From NCBI RefSeq assembly GCF_021365465.1, contig NZ_CP089932.1, positions 1,736,001 through 1,800,000 of the forward strand: DNA of 64,000 nt, given 5' to 3'. The notes under the pieces were generated by a model. That model had not been told where the DNA came from, searched no databases, and was given only the letters and a program-made list of their open reading frames with translations. Numbering within the stretch: the stretch's first letter is position 1; the number at the start of each line of letters is the position of its first letter. Both the position numbers and the translations under genes were made by a program. Shown piece after piece: positions 5,401 to 19,913 of this stretch. This DNA is from Erwinia tracheiphila. Its GTDB lineage: Bacteria; Pseudomonadota; Gammaproteobacteria; Enterobacterales; Enterobacteriaceae.

Positions 5401-6070
5401 AAACTAAAGGAAGAAATAACCAGCGCGGGAAGCGCGATCGAAATCGTCGGAATCACTGACCGGAATCATCGGAATACGCACCAAAGGCATGACCACGCGG
5501 GAAATCGTCGATACGTTCAAAGAGATGTACGATGCTGATGTGTCACCGGCCCTGATATCAAAAGTCACGGATGCCGTTAAAGAGCAGGTCGCCGAATGGC
5601 AGAATCGCCAGCTGGATGCGCTCTATCCCATTGTTTATCTGGACTGTATTGTTGTTAAGGTTCGTCAGAATGGCAGCGTGATTAACAAAGCGGTGTTCCT
5701 GGCACCGGGCATCAATACCGAAGGCCGGAAAGAGCTTCCGGGGATGCGGCTGGCTGAAAATGAAGGTGCAAAGTTCTGGCTGAACGTGCTGACGGAACTT
5801 AAAAATCGCGGCCTTCAGGACATCCTGATTGCCTGCGTGGATGGCCTGAAGGGCTTCCCGGATGCGATAAACAGCGTCTATCTGCAGACTCACATCCAGC
5901 TGTGCATCATCCACATGGTGCGTAACCGCCTGAAATACGTGGCGTGGAAGGACTACAAAGCGGTCACGGGCGGGCTGAAAACCGTTTATCAGGCACCAAC
6001 AGAAGCGGCCGCACGGATGGCGCTGGCTGCGTTCGCCGAAGAATGGGATGACAAATATCCACAAATCAGC

Positions 6071-7271
6071 TGTACTAGCTCAGACCTGATCTGACAGTTA
6101 CCGGTTATTTATACAGGTGTCTGTCAGATTACATCTGGTTCAGATTTTTTTCTGCCCAGACTCGTTTACCATCAAGTAACGTGGCCATTGGCGTACGCCC
6201 GCAGCACATTTTTCCCTGATGAGTTCGCTCATTATTGTAATGCCACAACCAGTTGTCCAGATCCGTTTGCAGGCTCTCCAGGTCTTCGTATAACTTCTTA
6301 CGGAACGTAACCTGATAAAAATCCTGCAAAATAGTTTTATGGAAGCGCTCGCAGATGCCGTTCGTCTGCGGAGACATCGCCTTCGTTTTTGTATGGTCGA
6401 TATCGTTGATGGCCAGATACAGCTGGTAATCATGCTGCTCCACCTTACCACAGTACTCCGTTCCCCTGTCGGTCAGGATCCTCAGCATCGGCAGTCCCTG
6501 AGCCTCGTAGAACGGCAGTACGCGATCATTGAGCAGGTCTGCGGCGGTGATCGGCGTTTTACTCGTATACAGTTTGCAGTGTGCCACTTTCGAGTACGTA
6601 TCCACGAACGTCTGCTGGTAGATACGACCCACACCTTTCAGATTGCCCACGTAGAAGGTGTCCTGCGACCCGAGATAACCCGGGTGAGCAGTTTCGATTT
6701 CTCCGCTGGCCTCGTCATCGTGGGCCTTCTTCTCCAGCGCTGCGATTTGAGCGTCGGTAAGCACGATGCCTTCTCTGGCGACCTTTTCCTCAAGTGCCTT
6801 CAGGCGTTTACGGAAGTTCTCCAGGTCGTGCCGTTGCCAGATGGAGCGCACGCCGCTACCGGAGATAAACACGCCTTTTTTACGCAGCTCATTACTGGTC
6901 CGGTGTTGCCCGTGGGCCGGGAACTCAACGGCATATTCAACAACAGCGCGTTCAGTGGCTTCGTCGGCGCGGTTCTTCAGGTTGGGGACGCGGCGGTTCT
7001 GGTTAATCAGCGCATCGATGCCGCCTTCAGCAGCCAGTTCCTGATAACGGTAAAACGTGTCGCGTGACACGCCCATGATCTTGCAGGCTTTTGATACGTT
7101 ACCGAGTTCTTCGGCGAGATTGAGCAGGCCGGCTTTGTGTTTGATGATGGGATTGTTAGTATGAATCATGAGAGTTACCTCGCGTTTTGTTTAAGGATTA
7201 GACACCCATATCAAAACCGGTAACTCTCAACCTTTCAAGGTCCAGTGTCAGATCAAGTCGCGACTAATACA
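6071..7271 (-). mobile_element. IS481-family element copy 1, 1201 bp
   Basis: Imperfect terminal inverted repeats are seen (TGTACTAGCTCAGACC on the left, TGTATTAGTCGCGACT on the right read inward), both leading into TGATCTGACA. The element is flanked by a 7-base duplication, AATCAGC, at 6064-6070 and 7272-7278, and sits inside the IS256 transposase gene. A second copy of exactly the same length is at 21263-22463 in the opposite orientation. Confidence 0.95.
6129..7169 (-). CDS. IS481-family transposase
   Basis: The 346-residue transposase has an N-terminal helix-turn-helix (KACKIMGVSRDTFYRYQ) and an rve-type DDE core with aspartates in VDTYSKVAH and TDRGTEYCG and the third acidic residue in GICERFHKT. 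It is a single uninterrupted frame, as usual for IS481. It differs from copy 2 at a modest number of positions (for example AAEGG against EEGG), so the copies are not the newest in the window. Confidence 0.93.
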   Translation of the reverse strand: MIHTNNPIIKHKAGLLNLAEELGNVSKACKIMGVSRDTFYRYQELAAEGGIDALINQNRRVPNLKNRADEATERAVVEYAVEFPAHGQHRTSNELRKKGVFISGSGVRSIWQRHDLENFRKRLKALEEKVAREGIVLTDAQIAALEKKAHDDEASGEIETAHPGYLGSQDTFYVGNLKGVGRIYQQTFVDTYSKVAHCKLYTSKTPITAADLLNDRVLPFYEAQGLPMLRILTDRGTEYCGKVEQHDYQLYLAINDIDHTKTKAMSPQTNGICERFHKTILQDFYQVTFRKKLYEDLESLQTDLDNWLWHYNNERTHQGKMCCGRTPMATLLDGKRVWAEKNLNQM

Positions 7272-12083: not shown

Positions 12084-13299
12084 ATGTCACGTAGCATTGC
12101 ACCCGGATACTGTACGTTGAAAGACAGGGATCGCTGGAGAGTCAGGCACGGGAACTCTTCAGGGATACCCGCTCCCCTGCCACCAGTCTGTTTATGAAAC
12201 TCAATGCGGATACACCTATTCAGCTGACAATGCACATGCTTAACAGTCTCAGGCAGTTGAAGAACAAAACCAGTGCTGCTTTTACCGACGTTAATGGCGA
12301 CGATGCCAGCTTTATGCAGAAACATTACGGACTGATTGCTGCGCTGATCGACGCCGGAGGCAAGATTTTCAGCACCGCTGGCGATGCAGGTGAAAAGTAC
12401 TTCAGGGCTATTGAGCAGACACTGAAGAAATTGAGGCCAGCTACCAGAATCAGTTTCGCACTCAGGGAACGCTGATCGGCCAGCAGTTTTACGTTGAGCG
12501 CAATCAGCTGTTGAATCAGTTAAAAGAGTGGGTCAATAAACCGCTGTTAAAATCGCTGGCCCGCTATACCGTGAAATTCCGCCAGTATGAAAGCATGAAG
12601 CGGGCGTTAAACCTCTCCAGCCGCTCGATGGTGCATGAGTGGTCAACTGTGGGGCTGGGTGGCATTCCCGGTTATTCTTACTATGTCGGTAATGCGGACA
12701 GAGCAGCGCGTTTCCTTAAGGCCGGAGGGTATATTGGCACTGGATTTTCGTTTGCCGGAACGGCGAATGATGTGGTGAATGCCTGTACGACAGGGCGGAA
12801 AGAGGAATGCGGGAAAATAGCTGTGCGGAAATATTCAAAATTTGCGCCTGGTACCGCTGGAGGCATTGCAGGGGGGCATATGGAGGTGCTTTTATGGTCG
12901 GCGCTTGTACCGCTATTCTTAAATTATGCTGAAAAGGACTCAGGCATTAAAATTAATTCGATTAATATTGATAATTATTTATCTGAGTATCATCAGTGGC
13001 CGGTGAATAATAAAAGGAATTATACCACCAGATTATGGTCTCCTCAACTGCCAGGAGCCATGAGCATTTTTGAAAAAATGGAATAAATGTAAAAAACGGA
13101 CAAAACACTCAGTCTCAAAGTCCGGGGGCTGGCAACTGAATATGCAGAAATAAAAGAAAAATATGTACCCAAAATAGTCCCACCGGGGTTTATTGAAAAA
13201 CGTTACTATGAATTAAATCCTGATGTCGCGGTGGCGGGGGTGGATGCAGTCAGGCACTACCTTGATTTCGGCCGGCATGAAGATCGGAAATGGAAATAG
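12084..13299 (+). pseudogene. Degraded glycine-rich putative effector/toxin gene
   Basis: ATG 12084 has a good ribosome site (AAAGGA), but the first frame ends at about 12197. The protein-like sequence continues in a second frame (QGSLESQARELFRDTRSPA into MKLNADTPIQLTMHML), shifts again near 12430 at a run of A (LKK to IEASYQNQFRTQG), and runs to 13086. After two stops (13084-13092) the same frame carries a short C-terminal module, FIEKRYYELNPDVAVAG then RHYLDFGRHEDRKW, to 13299. The centre has a hydrophobic glycine-rich stretch (GGYIGTGFSFAGT, APGTAGGIAGG) like membrane-active toxins. The family is not firmly recognised. A secreted effector is inference. Confidence 0.5.
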
Positions 13300-16881: not shown

Positions 16882-17118
16882 CCTGTTATTTTCAGAAGAC
16901 AACTGCACGAAATGTCAGAGGCGGAGTGCGCGGGTTACCGCAATGATAACCCGGGACTGACTGAATGGTTTCTTTTCTTCCGGTTGTCAGGCGACATGTT
17001 CTGACCAGATGACGCTCACAAAAATCAGCAAAACTGACTCCTGGCTGGCATTCCGTTTCTCTTTTGTTTACTCATGCGGGAAGTTAATGAATGAACTCCA
17101 CCTGAAGAAGGTAATCTT

Positions 17119-18307
17119 ATGCAAAACAGGAAAATGCGGGCCACTTGGGTATCCGGCGTTATCAATCTGGATTGGCCTTCCGCCTCCTCACTCACTATCC
17201 GGGATGATGTTGAGCGTATTAAATGGCAGAAAGAAGAACTGACCGGTATTCTTGACGATATCGTGGCCATGAACATGAACGCCGTGATATTTCAGGTGGT
17301 TCCCTGTGCCGATGTGCTCTATGCATCAGACTTACTGCCCTGGTCGAAATACCTGACCGGGACGCTGGGCAAAAATCCCGGCTTCGACCGCCTTGCCTGG
17401 GCGGTTGAACAGGCTCATACCAGAAACATTGAGCTTCACGCCCGGGTTAATCCGTACCGCCTCTCAATGAATACCCGCGATGCCACCGTCGATGAACTGA
17501 ATAACTCATTTCCGGATTCTGCTTCCGGCGTTTACAGAACACATCCTGAATGGACCCGCGTCGACTATAATCGCTTCGCGCTTGCTCCGGTATTCCAAAG
17601 GTTCAGGCCTGGCTCGCCGGTATCGTTGAGGAAATTGTCACCCGGTACGATGTCGACGGTATTCAGTTCGATGATTACTTCTATTACGAATCCGCGGACT
17701 CCTCGCTGGACGACGACGCCACCTGGCAGAAGTCCGTCAGGGCTTCAACAGTAAAGGTGACTGGCGAAGAAACAATACGTATTCCTTGGTGGATGCCTGT
17801 CACTGGCGGATTAAGGCCATCAAACCCGGCGTCCGCCCTGCACGCGTATGGCGGAACAGGGTCGATGACCCGCTGGGGTCAGACATGCAGGCCGGGGGCC
17901 CAAACTATGATTCGGTGTATGCGGACACGCAGAAGTGGGTACCTGACGGCATCATTGATTATATCGTGCCCCAGGTTTACTGGCCCTTTGCCCGCAAAGT
18001 CGCCCGGTATAATGTGATAACCCGGTGGTGGGCCGACACCATCAGAGGCACTGTTAGTGCACTGTATATCTGCATGGTGCTTTACAAGGTCGGTATCCCG
18101 TCAGCCGCTGAACCTGACTGGACGGTCGAAGGCGGGGTGCCCGAAATCACCCGGCAGTTTGACCGGAATGATTCCCTGAATGACGTGGACGGATGCATGC
18201 TGTTCCGCCACATGTTTCTGAGAGAGCCGCAGACGCAGCAGGCTGTTGAGTATCTGAAAGCGCGCCGGGCGGCAGCCGGATGTCAGGCACAGGAAGAGGA
18301 GAAATAA
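17119..18307 (+). pseudogene. GHL10-family (DigH-like) glycosyl hydrolase, frameshifted
   Basis: A glycosyl hydrolase-like TIM barrel starts right at the N-terminus (MRATWVSGVINLDWPS) with no signal peptide, after the ribosome site AAGAAGG. The first frame holds to about 17588 (HARVNPYRL, HPEWTRVDYN), a second gives GIPKVQAWLAGIVEEIVTRY and DVDGIQFDDYFYYESADSS, and a third from about 17735 gives GDWRRNNTYSLVDACHW, IDYIVPQVYWPFARKV and the end at 18307. At least two frameshifts, plus a likely small deletion near 17835, break it. E. coli DigH of this family cleaves peptidoglycan strands already stripped of peptides. The amidase gene follows after 2 bases. Confidence 0.8.
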
Positions 18308-18309
18308 AA

Positions 18310-19086
18310 ATGTACCCCATCGATTATAACAGCTACCGCTCTGTAAAGGGTTTTAACCGGCGCGTGCGCTTTCTTGTCATGCATTACACCGCCGTTGATT
18401 TTGCCGCATCGGTGCGTGCACTTGCCGGTGACGGCACCGTGAGTGCGCATTACCTGGTCCCGGACCCGGACGACAAAATGTACATTGCAGCCGGTTTTAA
18501 CGATATGCGTGTTTTTAACCTGGTTGATGAAAACGAACGGGCCTGGCATGCCGGGGCCAGCTCCTGGGCAGGGTGGAGTAATCTTAACGACACCGCCATC
18601 GGAATTGAGGTGGTTAATCTGGCCAGTGATAATGACGGCGTGTTTGTCTTTCCTCCCTATAACCCGGTTCAGATTGACGCAATCAAAGAGCTGGCAATAA
18701 ATATCCTCCAGCGGTATCCGGACATCAGCCCTGTGAATGTCGTGGGGCATTCCGATATTGCGCCGTGCAGGAAAAGTGACCCCGGGGCCGCGTTCCCCTG
18801 GAAAACGCTTTATGAGGCCGGAGTCGGGGCATGGTATGACGATAACACCCGGTCAGCTTATCTGGCGGAGTTTGCCGCCGGGGGACTTCCGTCTGATGAG
18901 GATATCATTGCCAGGCTGAAAACCTGGGGCTATGACGTTTCCGGCACAACAACCGCTTCGGTGTTTCAGCTGCTTGTCCGGGCCTTCCAGCTACATTTTC
19001 GTCAGGAAAACTACGACGGCGTCATTGATGCAGATACGGCGGCCATTCTTTATGCCCTGACGGATAAATACAGCACCTTCAACTAA
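18310..19086 (+). CDS. N-acetylmuramoyl-L-alanine amidase, AmpDh3-like
   Basis: Zinc amidase that removes stem peptides from peptidoglycan. The 258 residues hold an amidase_2 domain (about 15-165) and a C-terminal peptidoglycan-binding-like helical region (about 185-255). By comparison with AmiD, zinc ligands are H25 (VMHYTA), H147 (VVGHSDIAP) and D157, with E100 (IGIE) and K155 as catalytic partners; all are present. The closest relative I recall is Pseudomonas aeruginosa AmpDh3, delivered by a type VI secretion system. There is no Sec signal or lipobox. Start ATG 18310 follows AGGAGAAAT. It shares a transcript with the broken hydrolase upstream. Confidence 0.9.
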   Translation: MYPIDYNSYRSVKGFNRRVRFLVMHYTAVDFAASVRALAGDGTVSAHYLVPDPDDKMYIAAGFNDMRVFNLVDENERAWHAGASSWAGWSNLNDTAIGIEVVNLASDNDGVFVFPPYNPVQIDAIKELAINILQRYPDISPVNVVGHSDIAPCRKSDPGAAFPWKTLYEAGVGAWYDDNTRSAYLAEFAAGGLPSDEDIIARLKTWGYDVSGTTTASVFQLLVRAFQLHFRQENYDGVIDADTAAILYALTDKYSTFN

Positions 19087-19171
19087 ACTAAAACTGACTC
19101 TGACCCTCGTTCGCCTGGTTTCAGTGAGGGTTTGCAGTTGTCATATTTCATAAATGGTATAAGGAGTTTTA

Positions 19172-19594
19172 ATGTCTATTCCTGAAAAGTTTTATATCCG
19201 CGAGTCTTCCGGGCAGATGAAGTATCTCAATTATCTGTTCAATTTCGATGCTTTGACTCCCTCATACTCCGGCATTCATACGTTTACCCTTGTTCCTTCT
19301 GAGGAAGGCTATTTTATTTGTGGTTTTGAAGGTCTTATGTGTGCCCGTTATGACAGCACCCAGGAAAGAATAGTGAACCTGAATCTTGCAGACAAAAGTA
19401 AGATTGCCGATGAAGATTCTGCGTTGTGGCTGATTGATGAAAATTCTGATGGCACAGTGATTATCAGGAACAAAAAAAATCCTGACCTGGTCTGGATGTC
19501 ATTCAGGGGAGAATTGCCTTTCAGCAGGGCTGTAGTAGCTCCTGCGGATTCAGGCGATGTAAACCAGTTGTTACGCATTGAGGCTGCTGACTAA
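19172..19594 (+). CDS. Unknown 140-residue protein after the amidase
   Basis: A clean ORF with ribosome site AAGGAG, 85 bases after the amidase. No family is recognised. The sequence is rich in beta-type residues and aromatics, with spaced patterns such as YFICGFEGLMCARYD, SALWLIDENSDGTVIIR and PDLVWMSF that could be repeats of a beta-trefoil or beta-sandwich fold. No signal peptide or membrane segment. As third gene of the cell-wall hydrolase cassette it may be an accessory or protective protein; a periplasmic immunity protein would need a signal, which is missing. Confidence 0.6.
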   Translation: MSIPEKFYIRESSGQMKYLNYLFNFDALTPSYSGIHTFTLVPSEEGYFICGFEGLMCARYDSTQERIVNLNLADKSKIADEDSALWLIDENSDGTVIIRNKKNPDLVWMSFRGELPFSRAVVAPADSGDVNQLLRIEAAD

Positions 19595-19655
19595 CACAGC
19601 AGCACACATCTCTGCTATACATGCATGACGCAACAGCCCGGAGGTAAGGTCGGAT

Positions 19656-19913
19656 GTGCAGGTGGCTTCTGACAGCAGAATATCAGAAGTCATCTTAACC
19701 CCTCTCGACTATGCTCAATACTCGTGTGTACCAAAGCGAGGTCTGGGCATTGTGTCGGAAACATCGCAAATTATTGAGCGGGGAGTGTCCACCCTTCCCG
19801 ACGAAACATGGGAGCAAACCCGCCGAAGGACGGAGATTATCAGCCCTCTGGCTGCGCTTGAAGTCGTTGGATACAGGGCCGCCGACGTGGCAGTGTTAGC
19901 GCCAATGATATAA
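19656..19913 (+). pseudogene. Possible Mu/Tn552-type transposase N-terminal remnant
   Basis: The frame encodes SEVILTPLDYAQYSCVPKRG and later RRTEIISPLAALEVVGYRAA, which resembles the N-terminal region before the helix-turn-helix of large Mu/TniA-type DDE transposases. The match ends at DVAVLAPMI, where the left end of an IS21 remnant begins. The rest of the gene was not found on the other side. Family assignment is from memory and moderate. Confidence 0.4.

What the first reader, a model, noticed from the sequence alone, without database searches (positions are those of the whole stretch)
17119..19594. Possible peptidoglycan-demolition cassette: DigH-like hydrolase, AmpDh3-like amidase and unknown protein
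The amidase strips peptides from glycan strands, and the GHL10 relative DigH cleaves exactly such denuded strands, so the two enzymes would act in sequence. Both start directly with their domains and lack Sec signals, as expected for type VI effectors; P. aeruginosa AmpDh3 is reported to be type VI delivered. The third gene is unrecognised. The pairing as a mobile antibacterial or self-remodelling module may be undescribed. Here the glycosidase is broken, so the system is decaying.
Basis: partly seen in the sequence, partly recalled or inferred. Interest (0 to 1): 0.75.

Follow-up and report, generated by a model that had tools for sequence, protein, structure and literature searches.

The report
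Mobile signal-less wall-demolition gene module
A decaying copy of a small mobile gene set, found intact in other bacteria, that encodes two cell-wall-cutting enzymes and a lectin-like protein without export signals; it probably works when the producing cell is opened rather than by being injected into rivals.

Summary
17119-18277 is a GHL10 glycosidase broken by two frameshifts, 18310-19086 an intact full-length AmpDh3-type amidase, 19172-19594 an intact 140-aa protein. Close intact relatives also show no Sec or lipoprotein signal. The pairing recurs in Pantoea plasmids, Intestinirhabdus and Erwinia, with a remnant in Pseudomonas avellanae. The enzymes are fused in both orders, and a metagenomic protein fuses GHL10, amidase and a third-gene-like domain. 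The third gene is thus an accessory module, weakly lectin-like, rather than an immunity protein.

Type VI delivery is not supported: VgrG lies near 1 of 12 loci, the third gene has no signal, Pantoea stewartii DC283 has an intact cassette but lacks T6SS-1, and the AmpDh3 precedent is disputed. One Pantoea ananatis plasmid has a phage-type holin at the head of the cassette, where relatives of that holin precede a lysozyme and large genes; five P. syringae-group plasmids keep com, levansucrase, GHL10, GH25. I favour cytoplasmic wall-demolition enzymes that reach murein when a holin or lysis opens the producer (0.38). Murein scavenging and T6SS remain rivals. New variant of a known kind.

The parts
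17119..17592 (+). GHL10 glycosidase, first piece (residues 1-158 of the intact relative)
   Evidence: Pfam PF02638 E 9.6e-22
17586..17735 (+). GHL10 glycosidase, second piece in another frame (residues 157-206)
17735..18277 (+). GHL10 glycosidase, third piece in a third frame (residues 207-391)
   Evidence: Pfam PF02638 E 1.3e-22 for the open frame 17786-18307
18310..19086 (+). AmpDh3-type N-acetylmuramoyl-L-alanine amidase, 258 aa, open, no signal peptide seen
   Evidence: Amidase_2 E 1.2e-25; PDB 4bxd AmpDh3 E 5.4e-103, residues 2-255; the P. agglomerans homologue matches phrog_9611 'endolysin' E 5.6e-67
19172..19594 (+). 140-aa accessory protein, weakly lectin-like, open, no signal peptide seen
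   Evidence: profile A1 against PDB: lectin chains 6ifa/6ifb E about 1e-3 and 2vsa E 1.2e-3; homologous domain behind GHL10 and amidase in P0008
16884..19893 (.). segment shared with P. stewartii plasmid pDSJ07 (90.4% over 3,025 columns), the extent of the mobile unit common to both
   Evidence: blastn
19662..19901 (+). remnant of the ORF that follows the third gene in P. stewartii (77.5% over 80 aa), largely inside the shared segment

Best explanation
The window holds a decaying copy of a mobile murein-demolition module: an AmpDh3-type amidase that removes stem peptides, a GHL10 glycosidase that cuts glycan strands, and a small lectin-like accessory that may hold the enzymes on the wall. The proteins carry no export signal, so they are stored in the cytoplasm and meet murein only when the producing cell is opened, by a holin, a phage-type lysis function or other lysis. 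There they act as the endolysin part of a non-phage lysis and release cassette (like a type 10 secretion system), and/or are released as wall-degrading exoenzymes. Shown: families, absence of recognisable signals, recurrent pairing, fusions, plasmid carriage, one holin-headed operon, decay of this copy. Inferred: enzyme activities and their order (from family members), release by lysis, wall binding by the third protein.
For: No signals in 15 close intact relatives tabulated. A holin (PF16931 E 1.6e-8, phrog_198 E 1.6e-13) heads the P. ananatis operon, followed on the same strand by the third-gene homologue, a weakly CBM-like protein, GHL10 and amidase. Of 49 plasmids with a relative of that holin I looked at six: in five a lysozyme-type gene follows it (not L147), and in five large RHS, Tc-like or other long genes follow (not L150). 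The amidase matches a phage endolysin family over its length. In P. syringae-group plasmids the order com, levansucrase, GHL10, GH25 is kept in 5 of 5 looked at, and all three enzymes of DC3000 lack recognisable signals; that levansucrase is described as extracellular, with a phage-associated promoter element (PMC3899960, abstract and passages). The GHL10 enzyme Cwp19 drives stationary-phase autolysis that frees signal-less toxins in C. difficile, in one medium of two (PMC6016235, abstract and passages). AmpDh3 is mainly cytoplasmic and co-regulated with the alpBCDE self-lysis genes (PMC9998450, passages; PMC7969949, passages).
Against: A holin is adjacent in one cassette only: tblastn with it finds no other copy in the window or the loci then held (the two-helix hydropathy scan of that call missed even this holin and says nothing), and this genome has no Phage_holin_8 match. 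No spanin-like ORF was seen beside the P. ananatis holin (simple scan). The AlpA-controlled ampDh3 operon did not contribute to lysis; its authors suggest its products are released by lysis. In the P. syringae-group loci L050, L052, L053 and L065 no GH25 gene was seen after GHL10 (by eye). AmpDh3-like amidases often stand without GHL10. Signal-less GHL10 stands without amidase in Ochrobactrum. The third gene's lectin likeness is weak and its structure model useless (mean pLDDT 39).
Confidence: 0.38

Rival explanations
1. The enzymes are antibacterial effectors of a type VI secretion system, injected into the periplasm of neighbours.
For: No Sec signals. VipA is present in 13 of 17 host genomes searched, this one included. 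In G013 VgrG lies 6 kb from the amidase on the same contig. An Hcp plus DUF2778 pair stands 1 kb upstream of com in one of five P. syringae-group plasmids. In I. alba the pair follows a weakly M23-like gene (below the Pfam cut-off) and tandem related ORFs with hydrophobic starts, an effector-immunity-like look (by eye); a 131-aa ORF with a hydrophobic start follows the amidase of G006. Amidase-lysozyme T6SS effectors exist (TseP, PMC11893102, abstract and passages), and AmpDh3 is counted as a T6SS effector family in a Serratia survey (PMC12165300, one passage).
Against: VgrG within 10 kb at 1 of 12 loci. No VipA or VipB in the P. stewartii draft with an intact cassette (Hcp fragment only); DC283 lacks T6SS-1 (PMC5603701, passages). 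No signal-bearing small gene is annotated directly behind the P. stewartii cassette, and the third gene is fused to the enzymes in P0008. No VipA in three Ochrobactrum genomes with signal-less GHL10. AmpDh3 as a T6SS effector is disputed (reference seen).
Confidence: 0.2
2. The module serves murein scavenging or remodelling: complementary wall enzymes gathered as a set, released incidentally or by another route, to digest wall debris.
For: Neighbours are often other murein or glycan enzymes: an LD-carboxypeptidase with a hydrophobic start follows in P. agglomerans, P. avellanae and I. alba; the lipoprotein versions in Enterobacter cancerogenus sit with GH3 and GH18; a DUF1460 gene lies near the amidase of an Enterobacter plasmid. 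ABC transporter genes lie about 5-6 kb on either side of the P. agglomerans pair, and the G006 amidase follows genes that look like a peptide ABC transporter (by eye).
Against: Does not explain why signal-less versions are kept while lipoprotein versions exist in the same genome, nor the holin.
Confidence: 0.24
3. In this genome the locus is a dead transposon passenger without any present function.
For: Glycosidase with two frameshifts and 18 of 144 invariant columns changed; transposase-like ORFs on both sides (by eye); an intact GHL10-amidase fusion elsewhere in the genome.
Against: The amidase is open and looks constrained (dN/dS 0.20-0.24 against five close relatives; pairs among those five 0.14-0.22). 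This speaks to the window copy only, not to the module.
Confidence: 0.15

Closest known systems
AmpDh3 (PA0807) of Pseudomonas aeruginosa
   Same: Full-length homology (PDB 4bxd, E 5e-103), no signal seen, reported mainly cytoplasmic
   Different: No GHL10 partner was seen in the passages read; here the amidase is paired or fused with GHL10 and carried on plasmids
Cwp19 of Clostridioides difficile (GHL10)
   Same: Only solved GHL10 relative found (5oq2, E 1.2e-97 for the fusion); lytic transglycosylase tied to autolysis and release of signal-less proteins (PMC6016235)
   Different: Cwp19 is a cell-surface protein; here a signal-less form paired with an amidase
DigH (YddW) of E. coli
   Different: DigH itself was not compared here; lipoprotein DigH-like rows lie apart in the tree, and this genome has one elsewhere
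Type 10 secretion systems (Serratia ChiWXYZ, Yersinia entomophaga HolA-PepB-Rz-Rz1)
   Same: Holin plus murein hydrolase in a lytic release system (PMC10847048, passages); holin-headed operon in P. ananatis
   Different: Holin seen in one cassette only, no spanin seen; two enzymes and a lectin-like protein in place of one endolysin
TseP, amidase-lysozyme T6SS effector of Aeromonas dhakensis
   Same: One polypeptide with amidase and glycosidase domains, like the fusions here (PMC11893102)
   Different: No T6SS link shown here; AmpDh3 is not mentioned in that paper's main text

Membership tests
AmpDh3-type amidase | Amidase_2 domain with full-length colinearity to AmpDh3 | tested here: met
   residues 2-255 aligned to 4bxd, E 5.4e-103
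AmpDh3-type amidase | No signal peptide, unlike lipoprotein relatives | tested here: met
   hydropathy and lipobox scan with lipoprotein controls
AmpDh3-type amidase | Zn-dependent cleavage of MurNAc-L-Ala; zinc ligands | not tested
   activity needs an assay; ligands were not mapped
GHL10 glycosidases | PF02638 domain over the curated cut-off | tested here: met
   77.9 and 80.8 bits against 27.9, in two open frames
DigH orthologues | Lipoprotein export and grouping with lipoprotein GHL10 proteins | tested here: not met
   no signal; intact relatives lie outside the lipoprotein rows (E. coli DigH not included)
T6SS effector-immunity pair | No Sec signal on the effector | tested here: met
T6SS effector-immunity pair | Adjacent periplasmic immunity protein | tested here: not met
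   window and P. stewartii: the third gene has no signal and its like is fused to the enzymes in P0008; I. alba and G006 neighbours with hydrophobic starts are unresolved
T6SS effector-immunity pair | Linkage to vgrG | tested here: not met
   VgrG within 10 kb at 1 of 12 loci
T6SS effector-immunity pair | T6SS-dependent secretion and killing | not testable with these tools
   needs an experiment
T10SS-like lysis and release cassette | Holin next to the murein hydrolase | tested here: inconclusive
   met in the P. ananatis plasmid; not found at the window or the other cassettes
T10SS-like lysis and release cassette | Signal-less murein hydrolase | tested here: met
T10SS-like lysis and release cassette | Spanins | tested here: inconclusive
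   a simple scan around the P. ananatis holin found none; not looked for elsewhere
T10SS-like lysis and release cassette | Lytic release of cargo | not testable with these tools
   needs an experiment

The most novel reading that the evidence does not exclude
A non-phage, plasmid-borne lysis and release system in which the endolysin is a modular two-enzyme murein-demolition complex (GHL10 glycosidase plus AmpDh3-type amidase with a lectin-like targeting subunit, also found as one polypeptide), used by plant- and insect-associated bacteria to free signal-less exoproteins such as levansucrase by opening some of their own cells.
Probability: 0.25. Interest if true: 0.75.

Novelty: new variant of a known kind. 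Interest (0 to 1): 0.5.

Why it matters
If right, it gives a testable answer to how signal-less extracellular enzymes such as P. syringae levansucrase leave the cell, gives a cytoplasmic AmpDh3-type amidase a partner and a context other than type VI secretion, and adds a modular kind of endolysin to lytic protein release outside phages. Even without the release step, fusion in two orders is strong evidence that GHL10 and N-acetylmuramoyl-L-alanine amidases work as a pair.

Tried and rejected
T6SS linkage was tested by VipA, VipB, VgrG and Hcp searches and by reading neighbours and found weak. The third gene as an immunity protein: rejected for the window and P. stewartii (no signal; like domain fused in P0008). 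Its fold: AlphaFold model at mean pLDDT 39, so no fold search was run. SOS control: no LexA-like site with at most one mismatch was reported upstream of the window, L106, L107, L048, L143 or L041 copies; one-mismatch sites were in the L005 and L111 stretches (the script's printed title says two mismatches, its cut was one). Hydropathy scan for holins: useless, it missed the known holin. IMG/VR: no relative of the glycosidase, two of the amidase. P0008's last domain in plasmids and the 118-aa protein in phages: no match. E. coli genomes: no near match to the P. agglomerans cassette. The E. cancerogenus pair was left out of the signal-less set because both enzymes look like lipoproteins.

Full report
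What is there. The window is G000:C1:1736001-1800000 of a 4.96 Mb genome in two contigs. Its genus contains Erwinia sp. E602: G006's second contig has the same length as the contig listed for that strain's protein. That the species is the IS-rich Erwinia tracheiphila is my guess and was not tested. The three genes are at the stated places. The GHL10 gene is broken: three pieces in three frames against the intact relative, with 18 of 144 otherwise invariant columns changed, against 0 or 1 in five relatives left out in turn. dN/dS of its pieces against three relatives is 0.16-0.43, against 0.13-0.16 between those relatives. The amidase and the third gene are open. Window 16884-19893 is 90.4% identical to P. 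stewartii plasmid pDSJ07.

Relatives. The same genome carries an intact 649-aa fusion of the two enzymes and, separately, an adjacent pair of lipoproteins, amidase and GHL10. Of the 58 loci from named genomes, all searched for partners by tblastn, adjacent signal-less genes are in Intestinirhabdus alba (L048) and P. stewartii (L049), and a remnant pair in P. avellanae (L095); L076 and L083 hold lipoprotein pairs; neighbours were read in 13 of the 58. Plasmids add P. stewartii DC283 (L106), P. agglomerans (L107), P. avellanae (L110, remnant) and P. ananatis. One P. ananatis plasmid holds two copies: in one the glycosidase is in several pieces, in the other it is intact and fused to a relative of the 118-aa protein that follows the amidase in P. 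agglomerans. Fusions: GHL10-amidase in this genome (cluster P0007, 9 sequences); GHL10-amidase-third domain in P0008; amidase-GHL10 in G024 and P0009. The amidase-GHL10 rows form a clade of their own (100/100), apart from the clade (97/99) that holds the own fusion, P0008 and the plasmid copies, so fusion probably happened more than once. On that tree the label 'no signal' needs 4 changes, so lack of a signal has no single origin there.

Misses. The pairing is not universal. Among 60 genomes (this one included) GHL10 of this lineage, taken by identity of 63% or more, was seen in 3 (G000, G006, G024) and the amidase, 63% or more, in 8 (G000, G004, G006, G013, G018, G024, G032, G036); in G006 the two lie on different contigs. 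In 394 genomes drawn from the order only G000 has GHL10 of this lineage; the next match, 59%, is a lipoprotein gene in G018. P. syringae-group plasmids have GHL10 with GH25 and no annotated amidase in the 5 looked at. 166 Salmonella plasmid records match the amidase, the 18 shown at 76-77%; the one I looked at has no GHL10 annotated within 5 kb. Ralstonia and Xanthomonas relatives carry twin-arginine-like leaders (by eye; motif scan on one).

The third gene. Eight proteins matched its profile in the large protein set (short proteins that share words with it only); those with a name are Pantoea. P0008's last 136 residues match the family (HMM 21 bits, BLASTP up to 39 bits; E-values of 1e-8 and 2e-9 are for a single target). 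The profile's only PDB matches up to E 10 are two lectin chains and one mosquitocidal toxin chain, all near E 1e-3; that such domains are beta-trefoil or ricin-B-like is recalled. A wall-binding or enzyme-holding role is inferred.

Delivery. VgrG within 10 kb: 1 of 12 loci (window, own fusion, G004, G006 twice, G013, G018, G024, G032, G036, I. alba, pDSJ07). VipA: 13 of 17 genomes; the four without are the P. stewartii draft and three Ochrobactrum. VipB: 2 of 6, same outcome for those four. Hcp: 6 of 6 genomes searched, in the P. stewartii draft only a 53-residue stretch. The paper on DC283 agrees. Phage_holin_8: 3 of 10 genomes, none beside a cassette. The holin of the P. ananatis operon is the only one found next to the module. 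Of 49 plasmids with its relatives I looked at six.

Reading. Two murein enzymes without signals, fused in both orders and once with a binding-type module, beside a holin once and beside another signal-less wall hydrolase and an extracellular enzyme in P. syringae plasmids, look most like the wall-opening part of a lysis and release cassette. The AlpA work cuts both ways: the ampDh3 operon is switched on with the lysis genes but did not contribute to lysis, so release as cargo is as likely as an endolysin role. Murein scavenging fits the LD-carboxypeptidase, GH3 and DUF1460 neighbours and the transporter genes near two copies. On checking I had first written that no uptake genes lie near and that GH25 always follows in P. 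syringae; both were too strong, so I lowered the favoured reading from 0.40 to 0.38 and the novel case from 0.27 to 0.25, and raised scavenging from 0.20 to 0.24.

Literature. A search for GHL10 with peptidoglycan and amidase gave three papers, none with this pairing in its title; I read passages of one. So the pairing as a module was not found in print by this one search of open-licence papers; most subscription journals are not in that library.

Noticed in passing
window 12194-13086: Two open frames without any Pfam or NCBIfam match, probably one broken gene by eye, lying among transposase-like ORFs.
   Followed up: partly
L005 797-1255: A Tlde1-domain gene (PF10908 E 5e-14, a type VI effector family by recall) about 7.5 kb from the intact GHL10-amidase fusion, with a transposase-like ORF in between.
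   Followed up: partly
L005 6851-8653: A signal-less FAD/berberine-type oxidase directly downstream of the GHL10-amidase fusion; a possible signal-less cargo gene.
   Followed up: partly
L042 6731-13009: A cluster of wall-enzyme genes by eye: lipoprotein GHL10, lipoprotein amidase, GH3-like, signal-less AmpDh3-type amidase and a DUF1460-like lipoprotein.
   Followed up: partly
L161 5001-5789: AmpDh3-type amidase (76.6%) on a Salmonella Infantis plasmid beside the yersiniabactin genes; 166 Salmonella plasmid records match the amidase query.
   Followed up: no
L054, L059, L066 about 5950-7190: Signal-less GHL10 between the same kinds of neighbours in Ochrobactrum, with no VipA in the genomes; its route to any wall is unexplained.
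   Followed up: partly
L143 900-5838: Big_1-type proteins downstream of the P. ananatis holin-headed cassette, with an annotated lipoxygenase next to them; candidates for signal-less cargo.
   Followed up: no
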